A stretch of 41,988 nucleotides of DNA from an uncultured Gammaproteobacteria bacterium (lineage in GTDB: Bacteria; Pseudomonadota; Gammaproteobacteria; DRLM01). The stretch covers positions 1 to 41,988 of the forward strand of contig CAMYKQ010000036.1 of assembly GCA_947259075.1 (NCBI GenBank), given 5' to 3'. The first letter of the stretch is position 1. Each line of letters begins with the position of its first letter. A program made the position numbers and the translations under genes. Positions 4,197 to 26,982 of this stretch are shown one piece after another. Under the pieces are notes generated by a model that ran no database searches, was not told the DNA's origin, and saw only the letters and a program-made list of their open reading frames with translations.

Positions 4197-4321
4197 AGGC
4201 GGGCAACGGCCAGGATGGCCGGGGTGCGGCGTCGTGGGCAGTGCCGCCGCAGAAAAAAACTGAATTAACGGCTTAAAAAACGTACGTCACATCATTCACC
4301 GCATTGCGCGAGGACACCGCC

Positions 4322-5740
4322 ATGAGAATTGTTTTGTTGGGAGCGCCCGGTTCCGGAAAAGGTACCCAGGGAAAATTGCTGTCGTCTAAACACAGTATTC
4401 CGCAGATTTCCACGGGTGACCTCTTGCGCGCGGCGGTGAACGCGGGCACGGCCCTGGGCCGCCAGGCCAAGGCGGCGATGGACGCGGGTCAGCTGGTCTC
4501 CGACGACATCGTGCTGGGCATCATCGCCGAGCGCCTCGGCGAGCCCGACGCCGTCAGGGGCTACATCCTTGACGGCTTCCCCCGCAACCTGGTCCAGGCC
4601 GAGGCCTTGGATCGCATGCTGGTCGATCTCGGCACCCCCTTGCAGGCGGCCCTGCTCATCGACGTAGACGTGGAGGTCCTCATCGAGCGCCTCACCGGGC
4701 GCCGCACCTGCGAGTCCTGCGGCCAGATGTACAACGTCTACACCTCGCCGCCGCGCCTCGACGACCGCTGCGATAAATGCGGCGGCAATCTGCGCCATCG
4801 CGCCGACGACAATGAAGAGACCATCAGCAACCGCCTGCGGGTCTACGACCAGCAGACCTCGCCGCTGATCGCCTACTACCGCGCGCAAGACAAGCTCAAG
4901 ACCGTGCAGGGCGAGGGGGAAATCAGCGGCATCTTCAACGAGATTGAAAAGGTGCTGCGCAAGCTGCCCGTCACCCCGGCGGACACCGAAGAGGCGCCGT
5001 CGTTGGAAGACCTGCAGAAAAAAGTGATGGCCGCCGCGGCCAAGGGCACGAAGAAGGAAAAGGCGGCCGCGAAACCGGCCCCGGCCAAACCTGCGGCCAA
5101 ACCGGCCGAGGTCAAAGCCGCCGCCACGCCAGCGCTTAAGGCGGATGCCGCCGCTAAAGCGGCGCCGGCCAAAAAAGCCAGCGCGGCGAAAACGGCGGTG
5201 ACGCAGCCCGCCGCGCGGAAGGCGGCAAGCGCGAAGAAACCCGCGGCGCCGCGGGCAGCGGCTAAAAAAGCGCCAGCCAAACCAGCCAAACCAGCCAAAA
5301 AGGCGGCGGCCAAGAAAAAGGCCGTAGCGAAAAAGGCGGTGGTGAAAAAGGCCGCTGCGAAGAAATCAGCGGCGAAGAAGGTAGCAGCCAAGAAAAAACC
5401 CGCGGCGAAAAAGGCCGCCGCTAAAAAAGTCACGGCGAAAAAGGCCGGCAAAAAGGCGGTGAGCAAGAAAAAGGCGGTGGCGAAAAAGGCCGTGAAGCGT
5501 CCCGCGGTGAAGAAGGCGGCGGCGAAAAAGACCGCGGCTAAAAAGAAGCCAGCGGTTAAAAAAGCCGCTAAAAAAGCCCCGGCCAAAAAGACGGCGGGCA
5601 AGAAAAAGACCGTAGCGAAAAAGGCGGTAGTGAAAAAGGCCGCCGCGAAGAAGGCGGGCGGTAAAAAGAAGACCGCCGCCAAGAAAAAGACCATGAAGGC
5701 GAGATTCAAGCCCGGCAAGGAGCTTCGATCCCTGTCGTAA
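4322..5740 (+). CDS. adk: Adenylate kinase fused to a histone-H1-like Lys/Ala-rich tail
   Basis: This is a 472-residue protein. Residues 1-215 are a complete adenylate kinase (ATP + AMP to 2 ADP): P-loop GAPGSGKGT at 7-15, DGFPRN at 84-89, and a zinc-type LID with Cys130, Cys133, Cys150 and Cys153. Bacterial Adk normally ends near residue 215-220. Here about 235 further residues follow a short acidic linker, made of Lys/Ala/Pro repeats ([11 protein letters not shown]), like the tails of bacterial histone-H1-like proteins such as AlgP or Hc1. The tail would be disordered, very basic and able to bind nucleic acid or polyphosphate. Reading is continuous, with no stop between kinase and tail. The ATG at 4322 is preceded by GAGGA and places the P-loop at its usual position; an upstream in-frame start would add only six residues. 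hemB follows 22 bases later. Confidence 0.92.
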
Positions 5741-5750
5741 TTAGAGTTAG

Positions 5751-6782
<1,032 letters not shown>

Positions 6783-14043: not shown

Positions 14044-14189
14044 TGACGCGGGTGGTTGTGCCAGTGATGGTTTTGATCGCGGAGTTAGCGCGCGCAGCAA
14101 TCCGCCGCGTGATCTCGCGCCGTAATAAACAAGCGCGGTGAAAAACAGACGCCGCGCGGGGATGAGGGCGCGATAGGGTGGCGCCAGCG

Positions 14190-14939
14190 CTAAATCGTCA
14201 GCGAGCGCCCGCCATCGACGGTGAGCACATGGCCAGTGATGTACTTCGCCTCGTCGATGAGAAAGCGCACGGCGCTCGCGATGTCTTGCGGTTCACCCTG
14301 ACGTTTGAGGGCGATGCGTTTGAGGATGTGGTCGCGGGTGTCCATTTCAGCATGTTCCGGCCAGAGAATGGCGCCAGGGGCGACGGCGTTGACGCGCACG
14401 GCGGGCGCCAATTCACGCGCCAGGCTTTTGGTGAGCATCACCAATCCGGCCTTGGCGATGCTGTACACCGGATAACCTTTCAGCGGCCGTTCGGCGTGGA
14501 TATCAGCGATGTTGACGATGCAGCCTTGTTGCGCCGCTAAGTGCGGCGCGGCCGCTTGTGACAGAAAGAAAGGGGCTTTGAGATTGCTGCCGAGCAGATC
14601 ATCCCACTGCATTTCGCTGATGCCGCCGACGGCGGTGGGATAAAAGCTGGAGGCATTATTCACCAGCGCGTCCAAGCGGCCCCAGCAGGCGTGGGTTTGC
14701 GCGATGAGCGCGGGCAGGGCGGCATTATCGAGTAAATCGCCGTGGATGAGCGCGGCGGAGCCGGGCCGCTGTGCCAGTAATTCATCACACAGGGCGCGAG
14801 CATCTTGCGCCGAACCGCGATAATGGATCATGACCCGCATGCCGTGGCGATGCAGATGGCGCGCGATCTCCGCGCCCACGCGGTGCGCCGCGCCGGTGAT
14901 GAGCGCGACCTTGCCGGTGAGTGTATGATGCGTCTCCAT
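14190..14939 (-). CDS. Pteridine reductase (FolM/PTR1-like short-chain dehydrogenase)
   Basis: This 249-residue NADPH-dependent reductase is likely to reduce dihydrobiopterin/dihydrofolate-type pterins. The Rossmann motif is TGAAHRVG (15-22), the second conserved block is NNASSFYPT (94-102), and the active site is Asp146-x12-Tyr159-x3-Lys163. Asp where classical short-chain dehydrogenases have Ser, with exactly this spacing to Tyr, is the mark of PTR1-type pteridine reductases. The position next to folB and folK supports a folate/pterin role. The ATG at 14939 gives the normal N-terminus (METHHTLTGKVALITG); an upstream extension of 30 residues has no family match. It is convergent with folK. 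Confidence 0.88.
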   Translation of the reverse strand: METHHTLTGKVALITGAAHRVGAEIARHLHRHGMRVMIHYRGSAQDARALCDELLAQRPGSAALIHGDLLDNAALPALIAQTHACWGRLDALVNNASSFYPTAVGGISEMQWDDLLGSNLKAPFFLSQAAAPHLAAQQGCIVNIADIHAERPLKGYPVYSIAKAGLVMLTKSLARELAPAVRVNAVAPGAILWPEHAEMDTRDHILKRIALKRQGEPQDIASAVRFLIDEAKYITGHVLTVDGGRSLTI

Positions 14940-14989
14940 GGCGGCTCCCTGTGAGTGGCGGTTCACTGTAGCGCAAAGCCCATCCATCC

Positions 14990-15150
14990 GGCTAGGAGCC
15001 TGTCGGACTTGGGCGATCGTAGCGAGCAAGGTGGGAGAGCGAGGCTAAGGCGGGAAGCCCGCGGTAGACGCGAAGCGGCGTCAGTCATTGAGGTGGCCGA
15101 TGCGCTGCATGGTAGCGCATCGGGGCGGACGCAGGATGTCCGCGGCAAAA
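14990..15150 (+). repeat. Repeat-like intergenic sequence with hairpins
   Basis: The 324-base gap between the pteridine reductase and the methyltransferase (14940-15263) holds no convincing gene. It contains a 9-bp perfect hairpin, CGATGCGCT/AGCGCATCG (15098-15122), then GCGGACgcaggatGTCCGC just after it. The stretch from TAGGAGCCTGTCGGACTTGG onward has the style of dispersed intergenic repeats in gammaproteobacteria. No second copy lies in this window, so this is a judgement only. Confidence 0.35.
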
Positions 15151-15263
15151 GGAATCAACGTTGCGAGACCGACTTCGATTCACGCAGGATGTGCGAAGCG
15201 TTTCCCGAGGGCCGCGACACATCGCGTATGACTGAGCGCTTTAATAGTGAAACGAAATTAAAT

Positions 15264-16472
15264 ATGAGCGAACGATCGAAACATAACACCAGTCCCGCGC
15301 TGCCGCCGCCCTCGCCGGAGGCGCAAGCCCATAGCGCGCGGTTACAGGCGCTCATCACGGCGGAGATCGCCGCGTCAGGCGGCGTGATCAGCTTCGCGCG
15401 TTATATGGAACTGGCGTTGTACGCACCGGGTTTGGGTTATTACAGCGCGGGGGCGCGCAAGTTTGGCGCGGCGGGTGATTTCATCACCGCGCCGGAATTG
15501 TCGCCGCTGTTCGCGCGCTGCCTCGCGCGTCAATGTGAGCAGGTCTTGCGCGCGCTCGGGCGGGCTGATGTCTTGGAGGTGGGCGCGGGTTCGGGCGTGC
15601 TGGTGGCGGAGATGTTGAACGCCTTGGCGCAGCTGGGATGTTTGCCCGAACATTATTTCATTCTCGAGCGCAGCGCGGATTTGCGCGAACGGCAACAGGC
15701 CTTGTTGCGCGAACGCGTGCCGCAATGGCTGGAGCGCGTGGTATGGCTGGAGCGCTTGCCCGCCGCGCCGTTTCGCGGCGTGGTGCTGGCCAATGAATTG
15801 CTCGATGCCTTGCCCGTGCATTTATTCACGATCGCGGACGACGGGCCACGGGAGTTGTGTGTTGGGGTTGGCGATGGCGATGGCGATGGCGCTTTGACGT
15901 GGCGCACGGCGCCGCTGTCGGATCCAGGCTTGCAAACGCGCCTCGCGGCGATACGGCGGACCTTGGGCGAGGACGCCTTGCCGCTTGGCTATACCTCCGA
16001 GATCAATCTCGCCGCCGAGGCCTGGCTCGGCAGCGTGGCCGAGGTGTTGGCGGCCGGGGTGATCTTGCTCATCGATTATGGCTTTCCGCGCCATGAGTAT
16101 TATCACTCGCAACGCGCCAGCGGCACCTTGATGTGTCACTATCGCCATCGCGCTCATGGTGATCCCTTGTTCCTGCCGGGCTTGCAGGACATCACCGCGC
16201 ATGTGGATTTCACCGCGCTGGCCGAGGCGGCGCTTGATAATGAGTTGTCAGTGGCGGGCTACACCACACAAGGCGCGTTTTTGTTAGCCAGCGGCATTAC
16301 CGAACAGCTTGCGGCCGCCGGCGAGAAGGAGCAATTGCAACTCGCGCAGCACGTTAAAAAACTCACCTTGCCGCATGAAATGGGCGAGTTGTTTAAAGTG
16401 CTGGCGCTCACTCGCGGTTTCGATGAGCCCTTGCTGGGTTTCGCTTGGCGGGATCTGCGGGGAAAACTCTAA
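15264..16472 (+). CDS. SAM-dependent methyltransferase, MidA/NDUFAF7 (COG1565) family
   Basis: This 402-residue protein matches the family whose mitochondrial member NDUFAF7 methylates an arginine of a complex I subunit; bacterial substrates are mostly unknown. Signatures seen: YMELALYAPGLGYY at about 47-60, the diagnostic GDFITAPELSPLFA at 71-84, the SAM-binding EVGAGSGVL at 105-113, and VLANELLDALPVHLF in the middle. The C-terminal half has LIDYGFPRHEYYH, also conserved. The ATG at 15264 is chosen to keep a modest N-terminal extension; an in-frame ATG at 15228 would add 12 residues, and neither has a strong ribosome site. It is tail-to-tail with the patatin gene, 4 bases apart. Confidence 0.9.
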   Translation: MSERSKHNTSPALPPPSPEAQAHSARLQALITAEIAASGGVISFARYMELALYAPGLGYYSAGARKFGAAGDFITAPELSPLFARCLARQCEQVLRALGRADVLEVGAGSGVLVAEMLNALAQLGCLPEHYFILERSADLRERQQALLRERVPQWLERVVWLERLPAAPFRGVVLANELLDALPVHLFTIADDGPRELCVGVGDGDGDGALTWRTAPLSDPGLQTRLAAIRRTLGEDALPLGYTSEINLAAEAWLGSVAEVLAAGVILLIDYGFPRHEYYHSQRASGTLMCHYRHRAHGDPLFLPGLQDITAHVDFTALAEAALDNELSVAGYTTQGAFLLASGITEQLAAAGEKEQLQLAQHVKKLTLPHEMGELFKVLALTRGFDEPLLGFAWRDLRGKL

Positions 16473-17974: not shown

Positions 17975-18391
17975 TTATTTATTCCAGCATTTCTTTTTGG
18001 CGGTGGTGGAGATGTCGGGGCCATTGCTGGTGATGGTGAAGGTGCCGCAACTGTCGCCGGACTGCGGTCCGCCCGACTTTGGCGTGGCGGTGGCGGTGAA
18101 GGTGATGGCGCTCGACGCCGAAATGGCGACGGTGTAATAGCCTTCCAAGGAGTCGGTTCCGCTCCAGCCCAGGCCGCTGAGGGCGCTGTTGTATGTTGGA
18201 TTGTTGGCGCGCCATTTTTCCTGCTGCATCTGGATTTGCAGCAGACTGGTCATGGCGTCGGCGCGGCGGCCCTTCCTCAATGAGTCCTGATATGCGGGGA
18301 GGGCGATGGAGCCAAGGATGGCGACGATCGCCACCACGATCATCAATTCCAATAGGGTGAATCCTTTTGCTCTGCTTATCATTTCACTCAT
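17975..18391 (-). CDS. pilE: Type IV pilin PilE-like minor pilin
   Basis: This is a 138-residue prepilin. The leader MSEMISRAKG is followed by the class III cleavage and helix motif FTLLELMIVVAIVAILGSIALP, with Glu at position 5 of the mature protein. The globular part has two Cys (SGDSCGTF and KKCWNK), which would form the C-terminal disulfide loop. Cleavage and N-methylation would be by PilD. The form matches PilE-type minor pilins that usually close the fimT-pilVWXY1E cluster; here it stands alone on the opposite strand, 230 bases from fimT. An ATG three codons downstream is an alternative start. Confidence 0.9.
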   Translation of the reverse strand: MSEMISRAKGFTLLELMIVVAIVAILGSIALPAYQDSLRKGRRADAMTSLLQIQMQQEKWRANNPTYNSALSGLGWSGTDSLEGYYTVAISASSAITFTATATPKSGGPQSGDSCGTFTITSNGPDISTTAKKKCWNK

Positions 18392-18621: not shown

Positions 18622-19206
18622 ATGAACACGACTTTATTACATAAATTGTCGCGTAAGAGCGCCGCGCCCAATATATCGACAGGGTTTACTCTGGTTGAAT
18701 TGATGGTGGCGCTGGCGGTGACCGCCATCGTTCTGACCATGGCGGTACCTTCTTTTACTTCCTTGTTGGAGCGCAGCCGGCTGAAGGCCGCCGCCAATGC
18801 GATGTACGACGATATTCGTTTCGCCCGCACCGTGGCGATTAAAAACAATAAAGATATCTATATCTCATTCACCACCGGCGACAACTGGTGTTATGGCTTG
18901 AGTGATAATGGCGTATGTAATTGCGGCACAGCGAGTTCATGCCAGGTTGAAGGCGTGGACCGCGTGCTGAGTGGAAGTGATTTTTCCGGAATTACCTTGC
19001 CGACCTCATCAGTAGCAATTGCAGGCGGCACCTCCTTCGTCTTTGAGCCGCGCCGCGGCATCGCGCAGGATAGCGCGGGTGTGTGGCGCAATGGCGCTTT
19101 GTCCCTTGCTTCCGCCAGCGGCGAGTCCATACAAACCGCCGTGAGTATCGTGGGCAGGGTGAGTCAGTGTTCCAGCAGTGTAGGCGGGTACCCAGCATCA
19201 TGTTGA
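18622..19206 (+). CDS. fimT: Minor pseudopilin of the FimT/GspH family
   Basis: This 194-residue prepilin has a long leader ending in STG, then FTLVELMVALAVTAIVLTMAVPSF with the conserved Glu5, cut by the prepilin peptidase. The first helix is followed by SLLERSRLKAAANAMYDDIRFARTVAI, characteristic of the GspH/FimT group, and then a beta-rich domain. Cys residues cluster in two regions (CNCGTASSCQ and SQCSSS...SC). Some FimT proteins bind DNA during natural transformation; whether this one does cannot be seen. The gene overlaps pilW by 7 bases and opens a four-gene minor-pilin operon behind a sigma-54 promoter. Confidence 0.88.
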   Translation: MNTTLLHKLSRKSAAPNISTGFTLVELMVALAVTAIVLTMAVPSFTSLLERSRLKAAANAMYDDIRFARTVAIKNNKDIYISFTTGDNWCYGLSDNGVCNCGTASSCQVEGVDRVLSGSDFSGITLPTSSVAIAGGTSFVFEPRRGIAQDSAGVWRNGALSLASASGESIQTAVSIVGRVSQCSSSVGGYPASC

Positions 19207-20129
19207 AACGTTCCATTTCATTAAATAGTGGCGGATTCAGTCTGGTCGAACTGATGATCGGCATCACGCTGGGCTTGATTATTATTTCCGGTGTATTGGG
19301 CGTTTTTAGCAGCACCGTAAAAAATCAAAGTGATAATTTGAAGATGAGCCGTCTCAATCAAGAGTTGCGTGCCGTGATGGATGTCATGGCGCGGGATATA
19401 CGCCGGGCGGGTTACTGGGGTCTTGCCGCCGATGCCACGCGTCCCGTGGGAACGCTGACGCCCAGCGCGACCAGCGGGGCGATAAGTTTGACTAGTTCGC
19501 AGCCCGTCGCAAGCGGGCCGTTTGTTATCTTTAATACCGCGCCGCGGACCATCACGGGTCTGAAAATTATCAGTGGCGCGGGTTCGGCCACGATTACCGG
19601 TTATACCAATGGATCAACCGTGACGGGTTCGGTCGCCAGCACCTTTACCAGTACCGCCGCGATTCCGCAGGGAGGCTGGATGATCGCCAATCCCTTTACG
19701 GACGCGGCCGCTCTTAATGACATCATTATTTCCGGCAGCTGTATTCAATATACCTATGATATGAACGGCGATACCGTGGTCGATAATAATGAGCGTTTCG
19801 GTTTTCGCTATAACGCTTCATTGTCGCGAGTTGAAATGCATAAAGGCGGGGCAATTACCTGCCCGGGAACCGGTGATTGGGAGCCGCTGAGTTCGGACGG
19901 CGTGGTCGAGGTTACCTCGTTGACGCTGTCGTCGGCCGATACCCAGTGCATCAATGCGAATACCTTCGGCAATTGCGCGACGGGAACGCCCGCCAAGGGT
20001 GATGTGCTGGTGAGCGTCAGGGAAATCGATGTCACGCTGACCGGCCGTTTGCAGGGCGACGCCGCGGTGACGCGGACATTGACCGAGACGGTGAGAGTGC
20101 GCAATGACCGCATCGCGGTCGCGCCATAA
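19200..20129 (+). CDS. pilW: Minor pilin PilW family protein
   Basis: This is a 309-residue prepilin. The leader MLKRSISLNSGG is followed by FSLVELMIGITLGLIIISGVLGVF, and then the segment KNQSDNLKMSRLNQELRAVMDVMARDIRRAGYWG, which is the mark of PilW. The large C-terminal domain is Thr/Ser/Gly-rich and beta-type with three Cys. PilW helps prime pilus assembly as part of the tip complex with PilV, PilX and PilY1. The ATG at 19200 overlaps the end of fimT, which indicates coupling; the frame extends further upstream but only inside fimT. Confidence 0.9.
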   Translation: MLKRSISLNSGGFSLVELMIGITLGLIIISGVLGVFSSTVKNQSDNLKMSRLNQELRAVMDVMARDIRRAGYWGLAADATRPVGTLTPSATSGAISLTSSQPVASGPFVIFNTAPRTITGLKIISGAGSATITGYTNGSTVTGSVASTFTSTAAIPQGGWMIANPFTDAAALNDIIISGSCIQYTYDMNGDTVVDNNERFGFRYNASLSRVEMHKGGAITCPGTGDWEPLSSDGVVEVTSLTLSSADTQCINANTFGNCATGTPAKGDVLVSVREIDVTLTGRLQGDAAVTRTLTETVRVRNDRIAVAP

Positions 20130-20142
20130 CTGAGGTGAGCTT

Positions 20143-21210
20143 ATGAGTATCCGTCCTAATCAGCCGCGTTATATCCCAGCCCGTTTCAAGCAAAGGGGTT
20201 CGGCCAGCTTGGTCGTGGCGCTGGTGCTCTTGGTCGTCACCTCGATAATTACCCTCTACGCCGGGCGCAATGTGGTGATGGAGCAGCGTATCTCCGCCAA
20301 TGATTACCGTGCCAAGCAACTGGCCCAGGCCGCCGATGCCGGCGTGGAATACGGCATCGGCTGGCTGATCAGCAATCCAAACGGCGTGACTTGGAATGGG
20401 GTGGCCGATGCCCAGGGCATGGAGAGTTCGACTAATAACATCACCACCACGCTGAGCTCGGGTTACACGATACAGGTGACCATGAAGCGGCCCTTGAATA
20501 ATGCCGATCGCCTGCAGGTGTATGCCAAGGCTACCGAGACTGGCGGCACCGTGTTCTCCGAAGGCCACACCGATGTGCTGATGAGCAAGCTGCTGGCGGG
20601 TTATCCCAACGCCGCCCTGGTCTTGAGCGGTTGTTTGAGTAATGTCAACGGCAATCCTTCCGCCAATAATGCTGATGGGGTGGGTGTGCCGGTGGTGATT
20701 TCATCCCAGGACGCCTCTTGCATCGATACCGGTCATCTCAATCTCAACGGCGATACCGTGGTGGGTAATGCCTTCACGGGCACGGCTTGGGACCGCACCT
20801 TCTCCATCAGTCAAGCGGAGGCGCAGGCCATGGCCGCTGCCCAGGTGGCGGCGGGGGTTGCCTTCGCCGACCGCACCGTGCATTGGATCACCGATACCAG
20901 TCCCTGGCATACGGACATCGGCAGCCCCACCGCCAGTCCGCCGGTGTCGCGCATCATCGTCTTTACCGGTTGCCCCAAGGTGAATGGCGGCACGGTCTTG
21001 GTGGGCATCGTCTTCTTCCAGGGTCCCTGCGATAGCAACGGCTGGGGCGGTGGCAAGGTGTATGGTTCCGTGGTGATGGAGGGCGATATGAGTAAGCTGA
21101 ACGCCAATACGGAGTTCACCTACAGCAAAGCCTATATAGATTCGCTCTATAACTCCAACGCCGGGGTGCAATCCAAGGTGCCGGGTTCATGGATCGACAA
21201 GGCAAGCTAA
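20143..21210 (+). CDS. pilX: Minor pilin PilX family protein with long C-terminal domain
   Basis: This is a 355-residue protein. Residues 17-70 (RGSASLVVALVLLVVTSIITLYAGRN, then EQRISANDYRAKQLAQAADAGVEYGI) match the PilX N-terminal region, which lacks the usual Glu5 pattern. Typical PilX proteins are about 170-200 residues; here the C-terminal part is much longer, rich in Gly, Asn and Val, with four Cys (LSGC, DASC, TGCP, GPCD). This longer form resembles PilX-like proteins with a beta-helix or beta-sandwich extension. It lies 13 bases after pilW, with GAGGTGAGC as ribosome site. Confidence 0.85.
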   Translation: MSIRPNQPRYIPARFKQRGSASLVVALVLLVVTSIITLYAGRNVVMEQRISANDYRAKQLAQAADAGVEYGIGWLISNPNGVTWNGVADAQGMESSTNNITTTLSSGYTIQVTMKRPLNNADRLQVYAKATETGGTVFSEGHTDVLMSKLLAGYPNAALVLSGCLSNVNGNPSANNADGVGVPVVISSQDASCIDTGHLNLNGDTVVGNAFTGTAWDRTFSISQAEAQAMAAAQVAAGVAFADRTVHWITDTSPWHTDIGSPTASPPVSRIIVFTGCPKVNGGTVLVGIVFFQGPCDSNGWGGGKVYGSVVMEGDMSKLNANTEFTYSKAYIDSLYNSNAGVQSKVPGSWIDKAS

Positions 21211-21303
21211 TGTTGTTCTGTAGTTGCGAAAAGATATGACGTATTTGAAAGTAGGCCATGTATGAAACACAGCAGTAAGCGCGCCACCAGGAGCCTTGAC
21301 TCG

Positions 21304-22146
21304 ATGAAGACGAGTCGCATCTTAGGTTTTTCCATCGTCGAGGCCCTGATTACCCTGCTCGTCCTCTCTATCGGCCTTATCGCCTTGGCCAAGTTCTCCG
21401 GCTCGCTCACCAGTGAAGGGGCCCACGCCAAGTCGCGTACCGAGGCCAGCAATATAGGGGAGCGCAAGCTGGAGGAATTCCGCAATTATAAAGATGTCGC
21501 TAGCTATGATGCGTATGTTTCTGGCGTCGACACCGTGGGGCCGACGGGTTCGGGTGCAATGATAGAGATGAGCAACCTCAACCAAAGCTACCAGCGTCAA
21601 TGGACCGTGACGGACAATGGCAGCTACAAGAGCATCAATATTCAAGTGAGCTGGCCAGACAAGAACGGTGTCTATTTCATGCCGGATAATGTCGCCACGC
21701 TGCAGACCATCATCGCGCGGGTTAATCCGGTGACACCGGCGCTGACACCCATGGCCACCAGCGCCACGACGACGACCACGGCGGCAACGACCACGACCAC
21801 GATTGGCGCAGTCACGACCACGGCGGCGACCACGACGACCACGGCGGCAACGACCACGACCACGGCGGCGACCACGACGACCACGGCGGCAACGACCACG
21901 ACCACGGCGGCGACCACGACGACAACGGCGGCAACGACCACGACCACGGCCGTCCCCGTGACGACCACGACCACAACGTATCCGCCGACGCCAGTGACGT
22001 GTAACTGTAAAAAAGGTGTACCCACCGGTTCGAGCGTGGGCCAGTTCGGCTGCACCAGTTGCTGTAGCGTGTCGCCTTATAGTAATGGTAATTCCACGCA
22101 TAATTGCACCATCATCAATGGCAGTGGAACTTGCACTAACCCTTAA
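21304..22146 (+). CDS. pilV: Minor pilin PilV-like with Thr-rich stalk and Cys-rich tip
   Basis: This is a 280-residue prepilin. From the ATG at 21304 the leader is only 8 residues (MKTSRILG), then FSIVEALITLLVLSIGLIALAKFS. AGGAG (21289-21293) lies 10 bases upstream. The in-frame ATG at 21262 would give an unusual 22-residue leader and has no good ribosome site. The body to about residue 150 is PilV-like (EASNIGERKLEEFRNY, then VSWPDKNG). After it comes a Thr/Ala stretch of about 65 residues made of seven-residue AATTTTT units, then a Pro-rich hinge and a terminal domain of about 45 residues with seven Cys (CNC, CTSCC, C, C). The usual PilV has no such stalk or tip. A dense Thr stalk is a natural target for O-glycans. 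Confidence 0.85.
   Translation: MKTSRILGFSIVEALITLLVLSIGLIALAKFSGSLTSEGAHAKSRTEASNIGERKLEEFRNYKDVASYDAYVSGVDTVGPTGSGAMIEMSNLNQSYQRQWTVTDNGSYKSINIQVSWPDKNGVYFMPDNVATLQTIIARVNPVTPALTPMATSATTTTTAATTTTTIGAVTTTAATTTTTAATTTTTAATTTTTAATTTTTAATTTTTAATTTTTAVPVTTTTTTYPPTPVTCNCKKGVPTGSSVGQFGCTSCCSVSPYSNGNSTHNCTIINGSGTCTNP
21781..21948 (+). repeat. Eight 21-bp tandem units encoding the PilV Thr stalk
   Basis: Eight in-frame units of seven codons. Unit 2 (21802-21822) has diverged to IGAVTTT; all others encode AATTTTT. Units 3-8 (21823-21948) alternate between two near-identical DNA versions, one with GCGGCGACC and one with GCGGCAACG, so a 42-bp doublet is also repeated three times. Unit loss or gain would change stalk length without a frameshift. 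Confidence 0.93.
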
Positions 22147-22209
22147 GGTTTGTGTCTGGTCGATGATGAACGAGGCGGGAGGCCTGGCCGAGATGATGGG
22201 TAGATAGTC

Positions 22210-23217
22210 ATGATGCTTCGCAAGGAGGCGTTGATCAGCGTGGTGGTGCCGGTTTTTAACGAAGAACTGGCCTTGCCCGCGTTCACGGCGCGTCTACTGC
22301 CCGTCTTGCGCGACGGCGCTTGCAACTACGAAATTATTTTCGTTGATGACGGCAGCCAGGACGGCACGCCCCGCGTGCTCGATCACCTCGCCAGCGCCCA
22401 CGCTGAAATAAAAATCGTGAGCTTCGCGCGTAATTTCGGGCATCAGGCCGCGCTGCTGGCGGGCTTGTCCGCCGCCCGCGGCCAGTGCGTGATTAGTCTG
22501 GACGGTGATTTGCAACATCCACCGGAGCTGATACCCCAGCTCATCTCACACTGGCGCGCGGGTGCGAAGATCGTGGCGACCCGCCGTATCGATGCTGTGC
22601 AAACCGGTTTCGCTAAACGGGTAACTTCGCGTCTCTATTACCGCCTGTTCAGTTGGCTGTCGGGCCTGCCCATCGAGCAGGGCGTGGCGGATTTCCGTTT
22701 GCTGGACCGGGTGGTGGTCGATACCTTGTTGCAGTTGAAGGAGCGGACCCTGTTCCTGCGAGGGCTCTTGACGTGGCTGGGCTATCCGCAAGCGGTCGTG
22801 GAATATCAGGCCGAGCCGCGAGTGGCGGGGCGCTCGAAATATTCCCCGCGCAAAATGCTTTCCCTCGCCATCAATGGCATCACCGCGTTTTCCATAACGC
22901 CTTTGCGCATCGCCATGGTCATGGGTTTTATCTTTTCATTGGTGAGCTTCATCTATTTGAGTTATGCGATAGCCGTCTATTTTTTCACGGACGGAGCCGT
23001 CGCCGGCTGGACCTCCATCGTGGGATCGGTGTTGTTTCTCGGCGGCATCCAGCTTCTGTGTCTGGGCATCATCGGTGAATACGTGGGCAAGGTTTATCAA
23101 GAGGTGAAGCGCCGGCCGTTTTATGTGTTGAAGGACAGCAAGGGGTTGGAAAATGAAGCATGGAATGCTGCTGATGCTGGGCGTGCTGCTGTCGGCCGCC
23201 GCGCAGCTGCTGATTAA
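22210..23217 (+). CDS. GT2 family polyprenyl-phosphate glycosyltransferase (GtrB/ArnC/DPM1-like)
   Basis: This 335-residue enzyme would move a sugar from a nucleotide donor to undecaprenyl phosphate at the cytoplasmic face. The GT-A domain shows VVVPVFNEE near the N-terminus, VDDGSQDGT at about 46-54, FARNFGHQAALLAGL, and the metal-binding DGDLQHPPE near 98-106. GRSKYSPRKML near 216-226 is the amphipathic segment seen in GtrB-type enzymes. Two C-terminal transmembrane helices follow (about 237-262 and 272-294). The last 22 codons overlap the next gene by 65 bases, so the two are tightly coupled. It starts 63 bases after pilV. The sugar cannot be predicted. Confidence 0.93.
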   Translation: MMLRKEALISVVVPVFNEELALPAFTARLLPVLRDGACNYEIIFVDDGSQDGTPRVLDHLASAHAEIKIVSFARNFGHQAALLAGLSAARGQCVISLDGDLQHPPELIPQLISHWRAGAKIVATRRIDAVQTGFAKRVTSRLYYRLFSWLSGLPIEQGVADFRLLDRVVVDTLLQLKERTLFLRGLLTWLGYPQAVVEYQAEPRVAGRSKYSPRKMLSLAINGITAFSITPLRIAMVMGFIFSLVSFIYLSYAIAVYFFTDGAVAGWTSIVGSVLFLGGIQLLCLGIIGEYVGKVYQEVKRRPFYVLKDSKGLENEAWNAADAGRAAVGRRAAAD

Positions 23218-23503
23218 ATACGGCGTCACCGGCGTAGAGGGACAGACCGGCCCCTTGCTGCGCGCCGCGCTGCGCTGGCCGCTGCTCGCCGGGGCCGGCT
23301 GTTACCTCGTGGCCTTCGCCCTCTATATTTATATTTTGTCGGTCCTCGATGTCAGCTTCGCCTCCCCGGTGATGGTTGGCGGGGTCACGCTGCTGATTCT
23401 ACTGGGCGGTTATTTTTTCGGCGAACCCGTAGGTCTGATCCGGGTCGCGGGCGCCGCCTTGATCGTGGCGGGGATTGTGTTGATCTCGTTCAGCGTCGAA
23501 TAA
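23153..23503 (+). CDS. Small EmrE/EamA-like membrane protein, probable lipid-linked sugar flippase
   Basis: This 116-residue protein has four transmembrane helices (about 3-20, 36-57, 63-86 and 93-112), the size and layout of small multidrug resistance or ArnE/ArnF-type proteins. SAAAQLLIKYGV in helix 1 lacks the membrane-embedded Glu14 that drives drug export in EmrE, which fits a flippase-like role rather than drug efflux. In the arn and gtr systems a small protein of this kind moves the polyprenyl-linked sugar to the periplasm. It is encoded inside the end of the glycosyltransferase gene and is followed by the GT-C-like gene. Confidence 0.82.
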   Translation: MKHGMLLMLGVLLSAAAQLLIKYGVTGVEGQTGPLLRAALRWPLLAGAGCYLVAFALYIYILSVLDVSFASPVMVGGVTLLILLGGYFFGEPVGLIRVAGAALIVAGIVLISFSVE

Positions 23504-23519
23504 TCCGGGGCGCAATCCG

Positions 23520-26177
23520 ATGCAGGCTGGCGCTAAACGACACCGGGGCGCGCTGCTGGATGCGGCGGCTCTGATCTTGCTGATGGTTTTCATCGCCGAC
23601 CGTTTTCCCCTTTCTCTGTTATTGAGCGATAGCATCATGACCGGCGGTGATGCCGCCTCGTGGCATCAAGTGGCGCTGCACTTGAAAAACTCCCTGTTGC
23701 CGCATGGCCGTTTGTTTGGCTGGGATCAGAGTAATTTTTTCGGTTACCCCAATCTTCAATATTATTTCGTGCCGCCCTTTTTGCTGGCGGTGCTGCTGAG
23801 TTACGTCATGCCGCTCACCGTCGCCCTCAAACTGGTGAGCTTCGCCGGCATCCTCGCCCTGCCGCTGGCGCTGTACTGGGCCTTGCGCAAGATGGATTAT
23901 CCCCGCCCTTTTCCCGTGGCCGGGGCTTGGGTCAGTCTGCTGTTTTTGTTTCATGAGCGCTTCGTCATGTTCGGCGGCAATGCGGTCAGCACCTTGGCGG
24001 GGGAGTTCAGTTACAGTCTGGCCTTGGTGCTGATGGTCTTGTTCATGGGGTCGCTGCATCATGGCCTGCCCGCGGGGAAACATCTGCTGCGCAATGCGCT
24101 GCTATTGGGCCTGATCGGACTCACTCACGCCTTCGTGTTTTTAACCGCGGTGTTGATGCCGCTCTATTTTGCGCTGCGTAAGGGTTCACTCAAAGAGCGG
24201 CTGGGCTATCTGGGGCTGATGTATGGGCTGGCCTTTCTGGTGATGGCGTTTTGGGTGCTGCCCATGCTCGCGCTCTTCGACTACACCACGCCCATCAAGA
24301 TGATCTGGCGTTTTTACAGCCTTGAACAATTTTTAACTACCGTGAACTACGAATTGCTCGGTCTGGCCTTGGTCTTGGGTTTATTATTTTTCCTCCCGGC
24401 CTTGCGCCGCCATCATCTGGGTTTTCATCTCTATATGCTCGCCGTCGCGGCGGCGCTCTACTTAGCCGCCACCTTGCTCAAGGTGGCTGACATTCGCTTC
24501 TTTCCCTTTCTGGTTTTGTTCAGCTTATTGCTCGTGCTCGATGCGGCGGCGAGTCTAGTCGTGCTGGCCCCGCGCCGCCGGGGTCTGCTGAGTGGCGTGG
24601 TGTTTGTCATCGCCATCCTGCTGGGTGGCGCTTGGCTCTATAAGCCGGACCTGCAAGCACCGGCGTGGTTCGTCTGGAATTACACCGGTTACGAGGCCAA
24701 GCCCGCCTTCAAGGACGGCACGATGCAGCAACTGGCGGCCGCCCTTGCCGCGCCCGCGGGCGCGCCGCGAGTGGCTTGGGAGAAATTCGCCTATGACGGC
24801 GAGTTTGGCAGTGACCGCGTTTTTGAAAGCATGAATTTATTCACCGGGCGCTGGTCGACGGAGGGCATCCATTACGCCTCGGCCTTGCTGAGCAAGCCCA
24901 TCAGCTATATGCATGGCGAATACTCGTTGCATTCCGCCGCGCCGGAGGATCTCATCTTCTCCCATTACAATATGGAGATCGTGCCGCGGCGTTTCCGCAT
25001 GTTCAATATCCGCGACTTCATTGCCGCGAGTCCCGAGATCACCCGTTTGTTTGCCGCATCGCCGGATTTTTCAAAGACCGCCGCGGCGGGGCGCTACACG
25101 ATTTTTTCTTTGCGCGAGGGCGCGGAACGTTATGTGGAGTCGACGCCTTATACGCCGCAATTGCTACGGCTTGACGGTGCTGATTGGCGGCAGCGTTTCT
25201 ATGCCTGGTTCCGCCGTGGCGCGGATCTGGATTTGGCCCTGGTCAGCGGGCATCGCGCCACGGCGGATGAGCGCGCGCGCTATTTCCGTGTGGCGCCCGC
25301 GGAGATCGACGTCCATGGCTTCGTTACTGGCGCGCGGCGTATTCCTCAAGCGCGGGCCACTGTCAGTGATGAGGCTTTGGATGATTTCACCATACGTTTT
25401 CGCACCGACCGGCCTGGCATCGCGCACCTCATCAAGGTGGCCTATTCCCCCAATTGGGAGGCGGAGGGCGGTGAGTCTTTATTTCCGGTGAGCCCGGGTT
25501 TCATGTTGATCTTTCCTCAGGGCGAACAGGTTGTGCTGCGCTACCGGCGGCATGGGAGCGAAATCCTTGGCTTGGTGCTCACTACGCTGGGCGGATTCTT
25601 GCTCGTGATTTTGGCGTGGCGGCCGCGGGCCGCCGCGTCTTGTTTGCGCGCGCAGTGGATCGCGCGGCTTGCCACGGGGATAGAGCGGATTCGCTGGCCG
25701 GTCTACGGCGTGGTGTTGCTCGTCCTCATTGCCGGCGGCGTGCATGGCTGGCGGGAAAAGCAGGCGGTGTTCGACGATTATCACCACGGGACGCGTTTAG
25801 CGGCGCAAGGAAAAATGGAAGATGCCTTGGTCTATTTTCATCGCGCCGGCAGTGATGAGCACATCGCTCACGACGACAATGCCGATGTGCCCGCGGCGCT
25901 TTATGCGGCGGTGCGCGCCTTGCGTGAACTGGGCCGTGACGCGGAGGCCATCGCCGCGGCGGAGCGCCTGCTGCATTACTATCCCATGTGGATCTATGCG
26001 CATGAGCTGCATTTTCATTTGGGCGAATTGTATGCCCGGCGCGGTGAGCGCGACCGTGCGGTGCGGCATTTTCAGCGCTGTGAGGAGATGGATCTTTTTT
26101 CCTCCTATCATGCCGATTGTCAGACGCGCTTGGCATCATTGACGCGGCAACAGGATGTGAGCGATGCGCCGCGTTAA
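23520..26177 (+). CDS. Large GT-C-like membrane protein (PTPS-related type) with C-terminal TPR-like region
   Basis: This is an 885-residue protein. Residues 13-345 hold about nine or ten transmembrane segments. The first periplasmic loop carries GGDAASWHQ (41-49), an Asp-containing loop like the one used by GT-C enzymes that take polyprenyl-phosphate sugars. FFGYPNLQYYFVPPF downstream is typical of the 6-pyruvoyl-tetrahydropterin-synthase-related membrane family. A soluble periplasmic domain follows (about 380-680), then two more membrane segments (about 690-710 and 735-752). The end is a helical region with repeated A-x-x-Y/L patterns (DALVYFHRAG, AAERLLHYYP, AVRHFQRCEE) like TPR units. The next gene overlaps its end by 14 bases. 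Likely role: transfer of the lipid-linked sugar to a protein or glycan (inference). Confidence 0.75.
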   Translation: MQAGAKRHRGALLDAAALILLMVFIADRFPLSLLLSDSIMTGGDAASWHQVALHLKNSLLPHGRLFGWDQSNFFGYPNLQYYFVPPFLLAVLLSYVMPLTVALKLVSFAGILALPLALYWALRKMDYPRPFPVAGAWVSLLFLFHERFVMFGGNAVSTLAGEFSYSLALVLMVLFMGSLHHGLPAGKHLLRNALLLGLIGLTHAFVFLTAVLMPLYFALRKGSLKERLGYLGLMYGLAFLVMAFWVLPMLALFDYTTPIKMIWRFYSLEQFLTTVNYELLGLALVLGLLFFLPALRRHHLGFHLYMLAVAAALYLAATLLKVADIRFFPFLVLFSLLLVLDAAASLVVLAPRRRGLLSGVVFVIAILLGGAWLYKPDLQAPAWFVWNYTGYEAKPAFKDGTMQQLAAALAAPAGAPRVAWEKFAYDGEFGSDRVFESMNLFTGRWSTEGIHYASALLSKPISYMHGEYSLHSAAPEDLIFSHYNMEIVPRRFRMFNIRDFIAASPEITRLFAASPDFSKTAAAGRYTIFSLREGAERYVESTPYTPQLLRLDGADWRQRFYAWFRRGADLDLALVSGHRATADERARYFRVAPAEIDVHGFVTGARRIPQARATVSDEALDDFTIRFRTDRPGIAHLIKVAYSPNWEAEGGESLFPVSPGFMLIFPQGEQVVLRYRRHGSEILGLVLTTLGGFLLVILAWRPRAAASCLRAQWIARLATGIERIRWPVYGVVLLVLIAGGVHGWREKQAVFDDYHHGTRLAAQGKMEDALVYFHRAGSDEHIAHDDNADVPAALYAAVRALRELGRDAEAIAAAERLLHYYPMWIYAHELHFHLGELYARRGERDRAVRHFQRCEEMDLFSSYHADCQTRLASLTRQQDVSDAPR

Positions 26178-26982
26178 GCTGGGTGTTTATGCGCTGATGT
26201 TATGCGGTCTCTGTGCCGCCGCCGCGTTCGCGGGCGTGGTGCAAGTGCAGCTCAGCAGCGAGACGACGGTAACGGGGCCGCAAGCCCTTGTGCGTTTAGA
26301 TGTGCGCAATGAGGGGAGCGAGCCGTTGCTGGATATCGCCGCCCGCTTGCATCTGGAGGGGAATGAATTCGTTTCGGAACGGATTGCGCGGTTGCTGCCC
26401 GGTGACACGCTTTCCCAGCGCCTGCTCGTCCCCTTGCCGCCGCATGCGCGAGGACGTTATCTCCTGCCGCTGTGGTTGCTGTATCACACCGCGGCGGGTC
26501 AGTCCCTTGCGGCGGTTCATGTCGCCGAATTGAATACGGCCGAGGCGCGGCCGGCGAATCTGCGGCTGGAGCTTGCCGCGTTACACCTTGAAGGCCGTGA
26601 CGGCGGCGGGCGTTTATCTATTCATAATGCCGCGGCCTCGTCACGGGTATTCAACTTGCGAGCCGTGACGCCGCCCTCGCTGCATCTCGGTGGTCTGCCC
26701 GATAGCCTGAGGCTGGCGGCCGGCGCGGAGATGACGCTGCCCTTCAAATTGGAGGTTGAAGAATCGCTAATTAGCGGCGCGTATCCCGTGTTCGTGTTGG
26801 CATCGTTTACTGAGGAAGATTTGCATTACGCGCAATCCGTCGCGGCGACGGTGCGAGTGGGCGATAGCCGCAGCCTGCCCGCCCGGTTTTTCGCGTATAC
26901 GCAGTGGATCTACACCTTGGCGGCCTTGCTGGCGGCCTGGGTGGTGATGATGGCGTTCTATGATATCCGGCGGCGGCCTTGA
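26164..26982 (+). CDS. Exported beta-rich protein with C-terminal membrane anchor
   Basis: This is a 272-residue protein. A signal peptide (MRRVKLGVYALMLCGLCAAAAFA) leads into two beta-rich halves of the Ig-like/NPCBM-associated sort (VRLDVRNEGSEPLLDIAARL and GRLSIHNAAASSRVFNL). One transmembrane helix lies near residues 243-265, then the cytoplasmic tail YDIRRRP. This layout, a periplasmic beta-sandwich tethered to the inner membrane, occurs in accessory subunits near membrane glycosyltransferases. It overlaps the GT-C-like gene by 14 bases and ends the operon. I do not recognise a specific family. Confidence 0.72.
   Translation: MRRVKLGVYALMLCGLCAAAAFAGVVQVQLSSETTVTGPQALVRLDVRNEGSEPLLDIAARLHLEGNEFVSERIARLLPGDTLSQRLLVPLPPHARGRYLLPLWLLYHTAAGQSLAAVHVAELNTAEARPANLRLELAALHLEGRDGGGRLSIHNAAASSRVFNLRAVTPPSLHLGGLPDSLRLAAGAEMTLPFKLEVEESLISGAYPVFVLASFTEEDLHYAQSVAATVRVGDSRSLPARFFAYTQWIYTLAALLAAWVVMMAFYDIRRRP

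What the first reader, a model, noticed from the sequence alone, without database searches (positions are those of the whole stretch)
21304..22146. PilV with a length-variable Thr stalk and Cys-rich tip domain
Eight 21-bp units encode a mucin-like Thr/Ala rod between the pilin body and a seven-Cys terminal domain. Two alternating unit versions show recent doubling. The design, a pilin base carrying an extendable stalk with a compact tip, suggests a tip adhesin whose reach can change by repeat slippage.
Basis: partly seen in the sequence, partly recalled or inferred. Interest (0 to 1): 0.8.

Follow-up and report, generated by a model that had tools for sequence, protein, structure and literature searches.

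The report
Stalked pilus-tip pilin with sugar-adding genes
A minor pilin of a hair-like bacterial filament carries a repeat-built threonine stalk with a small cysteine-rich cap, and genes that look like a sugar-attaching machine for that stalk sit directly behind it, so the bacterium probably displays a sugar-coated, length-adjustable tip.

Summary
A prepilin gene (21304-22146) encodes a PilV/GspI-type body, an ~80-residue Thr/Ala stalk and a ~50-residue cap with seven cysteines. The array (21766-21950, 8.8 x 21 bp) is better read as a 42-bp A+B unit: three copies at 21814-21939, two identical, one with one change. Relatives in other families keep the design but build the stalk from different repeats (Thr/Ser, GTDP, Pro-rich, GT, GE) and with different caps, so stalk and cap are exchangeable parts. 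This is a modular pilin, a known kind. In the class sample all four genomes with a poly-Thr PilV stalk carry this GT-C gene (2 of 365 others do). It adjoins PilV in three families. In a fourth family it lies between two surface cytochromes with TTTTTTAPP stalks. Best reading: a tip pilin whose Thr stalk is O-glycosylated by the neighbouring module, in a minor-pilin set that alternates with the canonical PilY1 operon at one locus. Glycosylation, adhesion and strain-level length variation are inferred. One counterexample exists (G374).

The parts
17975..18391 (-). PilE/ComP-like pilin, divergent from the operon
   Evidence: PF16732 1.8e-24, N_methyl 4.1e-8; 67-72% identical copies in G001, G002, G003
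18622..19206 (+). FimU/GspH-type minor pilin
   Evidence: PF12019 4.2e-9 and N_methyl
19200..20129 (+). PilW-type minor pilin
   Evidence: N_methyl, PRK10557; syntenic in relatives
20143..21210 (+). PilX-type minor pilin, no Glu at +5 (cap-like K subunit)
   Evidence: PF14341 2.1e-12; sequence
21304..22146 (+). stalked PilV/GspI-type minor pilin, whole gene
   Evidence: TIGR02523 35.5 bits, residues 21-87 of the ORF read from 21262, below the curated cut-off of 52.2; sequence
21328..21750 (+). mature pilin body
   Evidence: 57% identical to G003, 46% to G041
21766..21950 (+). 21-bp / 42-bp tandem repeat encoding the Thr/Ala stalk
   Evidence: TRF 8.8 x 21 bp, 4.4 x 42 bp
21814..21939 (+). three near-identical 42-bp units
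   Evidence: first two identical, third with one difference
21997..22146 (+). Cys-rich cap (CxC ... CxxCC ... C ... C)
   Evidence: CxCKxGxPxGS kept in G003 although the stalk is not
22210..23217 (+). GT2, polyprenyl-phosphate sugar synthase type (GtrB/PgfS-like)
   Evidence: PF00535 9.2e-30; PgfS model 270 bits; GtrB 5ekp 1.6e-78
23153..23503 (+). small EamA/ArnE-like membrane protein, candidate flippase
   Evidence: PF00892 2.5e-6; 4 hydrophobic segments
23520..26177 (+). GT-C-like multi-span enzyme with C-terminal TPRs
   Evidence: PTPS_related 6.9e-15 and TPR; ~13 hydrophobic segments; invariant TGGD loop; weak OST/AftA/ArnT fold matches
26164..26982 (+). membrane-anchored accessory protein of the module
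   Evidence: no family at gathering score; homologues with the module in G003, G373, G157

Best explanation
The gene encodes a modular tip pilin. The N-terminal PilV/GspI part is processed and polymerised with FimU, PilW and PilX (shown by motif and synteny; polymerisation inferred). From it projects a flexible Thr-rich stalk made by tandem-repeat growth (repeat shown; flexibility inferred) that carries a small disulfide-type cap (cysteines shown; disulfides inferred) which probably binds a surface or partner. The GT2-flippase-GT-C module encoded directly downstream most likely makes a polyprenyl-phosphate sugar, flips it, and attaches sugars to the Thr tracts in the periplasm, stiffening and protecting the stalk (inferred from linkage, gene content and the S. 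mutans Cnm/Pgf precedent). In relatives without PilY1 this PilV probably takes over the exposed-tip role of PilY1 (inferred).
For: Prepilin motif and PilV model match; FimU-PilW-PilX-PilV order kept in many class members. Stalk and cap as separable parts: same body with TTTTTAA repeats plus CxC cap (window), Thr/Ser stalk plus CxC cap (G003), Thr/Ser plus a different cap (G041), Pro-rich plus a cap like that of G041 (G304), GTDP repeats with a CxC/CC cap (G243), GT and TTTT with a CxC..CxxCC cap (G373). Tandem repeats of differing sequence at the same place in relatives. GT-C gene in only 6 of 369 class genomes; all four class-sample genomes with a poly-Thr PilV stalk have it, 2 of 365 others do (Fisher 2e-8; among extended PilVs 4/4 against 0/13, 4e-4; not corrected for relatedness). 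Directly adjacent in G000, G003, G041, G371, G373, i.e. families f1, f37, f53. In G362 (f153), with no PilV link, the module lies between two cytochrome-like surface proteins with TTTTTTAPP repeats. No terminator-like site in the 63-bp gap PilV-GT2. Precedent: cnm-pgfS co-transcription and Pgf-dependent modification of a Thr-rich adhesin (PMC5856776). PilY1 not found in G003, G195, G371, G373; stalked set and canonical PilY1 operon occupy the same site in different genera.
Against: G374 has a PilV with a short TTTTTTSTTTTSTTT tract and no such GT-C. PilY1 in G001 and G002, which lack the module at this locus (and G001 has no GT-C hit), also has Thr runs. The same module type modifies LPS, teichoic acids or polysaccharides in other bacteria, so the acceptor could be something else. 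GT2 scores well under the PgfS cut-off (270 of 500). The window genome also has PilY1 elsewhere (C32). No usable structure model of PilV (pLDDT 41.7).
Confidence: 0.5

Rival explanations
1. Modular tip pilin as above, but the Thr tract is just a flexible unmodified spacer and the downstream GT module decorates another glycan (LPS core, O-antigen) or another surface protein; the adjacency is historical.
For: Multi-component transmembrane systems usually decorate polymers (PMC8035078). Other relatives use GTDP, Pro-rich or GlyGlu stalks with no such module. Thr tracts occur without the GT-C gene in G374 PilV and in PilY1 of G001.
Against: Linkage in three families plus flanking Thr-tract cytochromes in a fourth is hard to explain by chance.
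Confidence: 0.3
2. One reading: a contingency locus whose repeat number switches quickly to tune adhesin reach. This can hold together with the best explanation.
For: Two identical adjacent 42-bp units; lineage-specific repeats in relatives.
Against: Units are multiples of three, so only length, not expression, could vary; no strain series available; G003 has only weak, short repeats though the function is presumably kept.
Confidence: 0.25
3. The C-terminal part has no binding role: a neutral low-complexity tail with incidental cysteines.
For: Cap homology outside G003 is not statistically established.
Against: CxCKxGxPxGS is kept in G003 while the stalk is not; Cys-patterned caps recur on several PilVs and match the motif far more often than shuffles of themselves.
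Confidence: 0.1

Closest known systems
Modular type IV pilins (S. sanguinis PilB/PilC; Raynaud et al. 2021, PMC8179133)
   Same: Pilin module with a grafted C-terminal module best suited to the tip; S. sanguinis also replaces the HIJK set by modular pilins (PMC10191384).
   Different: Here a long repetitive stalk separates body and cap, the cap matches no known family, and a glycosylation-type module is linked.
PilV / GspI-type minor pilin (TIGR02523)
   Same: N-terminal ~67 residues match; operon neighbours FimU, PilW, PilX.
   Different: Below curated cut-off; order FimU-PilW-PilX-PilV, no PilY1 in this operon; ~120-residue extension.
S. mutans Cnm adhesin with Pgf glycosylation operon (PMC5856776)
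   Same: Thr-rich repeat adhesin co-encoded with a GtrB/PgfS-type GT2 and a multi-span enzyme.
   Different: Not a pilin; enzyme is PMT-2 type; pgfE epimerase is part of that operon but not of this one; PgfS score here below cut-off.
Multi-component transmembrane glycosylation systems (CsbB/GtcA/YfhO, GtrABS; PMC8035078)
   Same: GT-A sugar activator, small flippase, GT-C transferase.
   Different: Known acceptors are teichoic acids, wall polysaccharides or LPS; here the linkage points to Thr-tract proteins; flippase is EamA/SMR type; GT-C has C-terminal TPRs.
PilV shufflon adhesins of IncI-type plasmids (PMC9045228)
   Same: A minor pilin named PilV acting as adhesin with an exchangeable C-terminal part.
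   Different: Conjugative-plasmid pili and DNA inversion; here chromosomal FimU-PilW-PilX-PilV pilins and repeat growth; inversion was not looked for.

Membership tests
Modular type IV pilin | N-terminal prepilin leader and hydrophobic helix with Glu5 | tested here: met
   MKTSRILG/FSIVEALITLL; PilV model match
Modular type IV pilin | Additional C-terminal functional module not specific to pili | tested here: inconclusive
   Extra stalk and cap present, but cap matches no Pfam/NCBIfam family
Modular type IV pilin | Module displayed at the pilus tip and mediates binding | not testable with these tools
   needs pilus preparations and binding assays
PilV (TIGR02523) | Score over curated cut-off 52.2 bits | tested here: not met
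   35.5 bits over residues 21-87; filed as PilV-like only
PilV (TIGR02523) | Encoded with FimU, PilW, PilX | tested here: met
Multi-component transmembrane glycosylation system | Membrane-linked GT-A polyprenyl-phosphate sugar synthase | tested here: met
   PF00535; GtrB 5ekp 1.6e-78 over residues 9-314
Multi-component transmembrane glycosylation system | Small membrane flippase | tested here: inconclusive
   EamA/ArnE-like, 28.3 bits against cut-off 28.2; not GtrA type
Multi-component transmembrane glycosylation system | GT-C fold transferase, 8-13 TM, acidic extracellular loop | tested here: inconclusive
   ~13 hydrophobic segments, invariant TGGD; OST/AftA/ArnT among weak fold hits of a low-confidence model
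Pgf protein glycosylation system | PgfS over curated cut-off 500 bits | tested here: not met
   270 bits
Pgf protein glycosylation system | Glycans on a Thr-rich surface protein | not testable with these tools
   needs lectin blots or mass spectrometry
Shufflon PilV | Invertible segments and recombinase | not tested
   no dedicated search made

The most novel reading that the evidence does not exclude
A mobile O-glycosylation module (GT2, flippase, TPR-bearing GT-C, accessory protein) specific for poly-Thr tracts in Gammaproteobacteria, serving unrelated surface carriers (pilus-tip PilV; surface cytochromes), so that stalk growth by repeat expansion is matched by a dedicated stalk-coating enzyme and the stalked PilV replaces PilY1 at the pilus tip.
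Probability: 0.4. Interest if true: 0.75.

Novelty: new variant of a known kind. Interest (0 to 1): 0.55.

Why it matters
How PilY1-free type IVa pili present an adhesive tip is open. This locus offers a compact alternative: a tip pilin with exchangeable stalk and cap. If the linked enzymes coat the stalk with sugars, it would be a bacterial mucin-like tip with its own glycosylation machine, and poly-Thr tracts would become a usable predictor of substrates for this GT-C family.

Tried and rejected
(1) AlphaFold2 of PilV with three sequences: pLDDT 41.7, discarded. (2) AlphaFold2 of the GT-C: pLDDT 49.6; Foldseek hits are TPR proteins plus weak OST, AftA, ArnT, used only as a hint. (3) Homology of the cap to other CxC..CxxCC caps: HHalign not significant, and a profile of them does not find the window; kept as a resemblance only. 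(4) First genome-contig scan with the full protein: no relatives; an alignment of five sequences was too divergent; three bodies gave three named MAGs. (5) PDB search with the PilV body: no hit. (6) Poly-Thr DNA pattern counts per genome: too confounded by reading frame to use as a statistic. (7) Foreign origin by base composition: the operon's G+C (0.55-0.63) is close to its surroundings, so no support. (8) Literature for a Thr-rich stalk on PilV: none found in the held library (broader searches).

Full report
CHECK. The window is contig 36 of a 3.1-Mb, 65-contig draft genome. The gene at 21304-22146 encodes a 280-residue prepilin: leader MKTSRILG, then FSIVEALITLL with Glu at +5. Tandem Repeats Finder finds 8.8 copies of 21 bp at 21766-21950, and the 42-bp period scores higher. 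The 42-bp copies at 21814 and 21856 are identical, and the copy at 21898 differs by one base. The last 50 residues hold seven Cys.

WHAT IT IS. The gene is last of a FimU-PilW-PilX-PilV set (18622-22146), with a PilE/ComP-like pilin gene in the opposite direction at 17975-18391. The body matches PilV (TIGR02523) over its first 67 residues but below the curated cut-off. In the tip-complex nomenclature of PMC10191384 these are H, J, K and I subunits (assignment by established knowledge); placing PilV at the tip rests on that literature, not on a test here.

MODULARITY. A search of 369 genomes of the class found 28 with a related body. Extensions differ widely. G003 (named record CALZJG010000073, 'uncultured Chromatiaceae') keeps the body (57%), a Thr/Ser stalk without the window's repeats, and a cap with CxCKxGxPxGS. 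G041 has a Thr/Ser stalk with an unrelated ~85-residue cap; G304 has a similar-looking cap on a Pro-rich stalk (by eye, no statistic); G243 has GTDP repeats, G252 a GlyGlu linker and G373 (two tandem PilVs) GT and TTTT tracts, all three with CxC/CC-type caps. TRF finds a different tandem repeat in each. So stalks have been rebuilt again and again at the same place, and stalk and cap assort independently. Each cap's Cys motif is rare in shuffles of itself, but profile comparison gives no significant homology between the window's cap and those outside G003.

THE LINKED MODULE. Behind PilV (63-bp gap, no terminator-like site) lie a GT2 whose best solved relative is GtrB (5ekp, 1.6e-78) and whose best NCBIfam model is PgfS (270 bits, cut-off 500), an EamA/ArnE-like four-span protein, an 885-residue protein with about 13 hydrophobic segments, an invariant TGGD in the first loop and C-terminal TPRs, and an anchored accessory protein. 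The low-confidence model of the 885-residue protein still draws OST, AftA and ArnT among weak Foldseek hits, all GT-C enzymes by established knowledge.

ASSOCIATION. The GT-C gene occurs in 6 of 369 class genomes; a search around G195 added G371 and G373. It lies in the same gene block, directly after PilV (and GT2 or one extra gene), in G000, G003, G041, G371 and G373; in G041 a 493-residue protein takes the place of GT2 and flippase, and the GT2 homologue is on another contig. In G195 the PilV contig ends inside a run of 18 Thr and the module contig starts inside GT2, so linkage is unresolved. Every one of these PilVs (or one of the tandem pair) carries runs of four or more Thr. Thirteen extended PilVs without multiple Thr runs have no linked GT-C. 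Fisher: 4/4 against 2/365 genomes, p = 2e-8; 4/4 against 0/13 extended PilVs, p = 4e-4. These tests ignore relatedness; independent families are three. The strongest independent point is G362 (family f153): there the module has no PilV neighbour but lies between two secreted CxxCH proteins (one with choice-of-anchor U and a weak JDVT-CTERM match) whose middle is (TTTTTTAPP)n. Thus the module follows Thr tracts across unrelated carriers. Against this: G374 has a PilV with a short Thr tract and no GT-C, the Methylococcales PilV L078 has a single TTTT, and PilY1 of the same genus carries Thr runs in genomes lacking the module. In G157 (f153) no Thr-tract partner was seen, but its contig starts at the flippase gene.

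LOCUS HISTORY. Gene order plsY-HPPK-MT28-patatin-PilE/ComP ... NrdJ-DegP is shared. In the congeners G001 and G002, PilE/ComP and NrdJ are about 1 kb apart: the whole fimU-to-accessory block is absent. In G004 (another genus of the family) the same interval holds a canonical operon with PilY1. G003, G195, G371, G373 and G243 show no PilY1 (PF05567) at all; the window's genome has one on another contig. So the stalked set and the PilY1 set are alternative contents of one site, and the stalked PilV may stand in for PilY1. Some genomes are incomplete, so absences are provisional.

HOW IT MOST LIKELY WORKS. Shown: prepilin, repeat stalk, Cys cap, operon, module linkage, alternative locus content. 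Inferred: tip placement, O-glycosylation of Thr by the module, role in attachment, length change by slippage. The nearest tested precedent is S. mutans, where cnm-pgfS are co-transcribed and Pgf proteins modify Cnm, whose Thr-rich region is predicted to be O-glycosylated, changing protease resistance and function (PMC5856776).

NOVELTY. Modular pilins are known (PMC8179133) and so are GT-A/flippase/GT-C systems (PMC8035078). The combination, a repeat-built stalk on a tip pilin linked to a poly-Thr-tracking GT-C module with the locus alternating with a PilY1 operon, was not found in the held literature; most subscription papers are not in that library.

Noticed in passing
L099 (G362:C2) 4672-6390 and 14138-15454: Two secreted cytochrome-like proteins with long (TTTTTTAPP)n stalks flank a GT-C module, one with a choice-of-anchor U domain and a weak JDVT-CTERM anchor match.
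   Followed up: partly
L161, L162, L163; window 18622-26982: The minor-pilin plus glycosylation block is absent in two congeners and replaced by a canonical PilY1 operon in another genus at the same site.
   Followed up: yes
L035 4356-8198 (G000:C32); L130, L150: PilY1 of this genus has a Thr-, Gly- and Cys-rich low-complexity stretch near its C-terminus, also in genomes without the GT-C gene.
   Followed up: partly
L165 6900-8735, L166 5308-6096 (G041): Further secreted-looking proteins with extreme Thr tracts, and GGGSMGG repeats in the C27 one, in a genome with the GT-C module.
   Followed up: no
L097 (G195:C90), L108 (G371:C251): PilV proteins with GGGMM repeats and CGC motifs; in G195 the 15-bp GGCGGTGGCATGATG array lies inside the pilin body.
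   Followed up: no
L010 and L059 (G007, G265): Very long PilV-like proteins share a CxC ... CxxCC(K/R)DHHD ... YxExC module with no Pfam match seen in G007.
   Followed up: partly
L068 (G252:C1 3167435 and 3174772): Two loci about 7 kb apart in G252 encode the same CxC..CC cap with equal scores, suggesting duplicated modular PilVs.
   Followed up: no
window 5066-5685: Dense Lys/Ala-type 15-bp repeats (22.6 copies at 5314-5655) in the 4304-5740 ORF.
   Followed up: no
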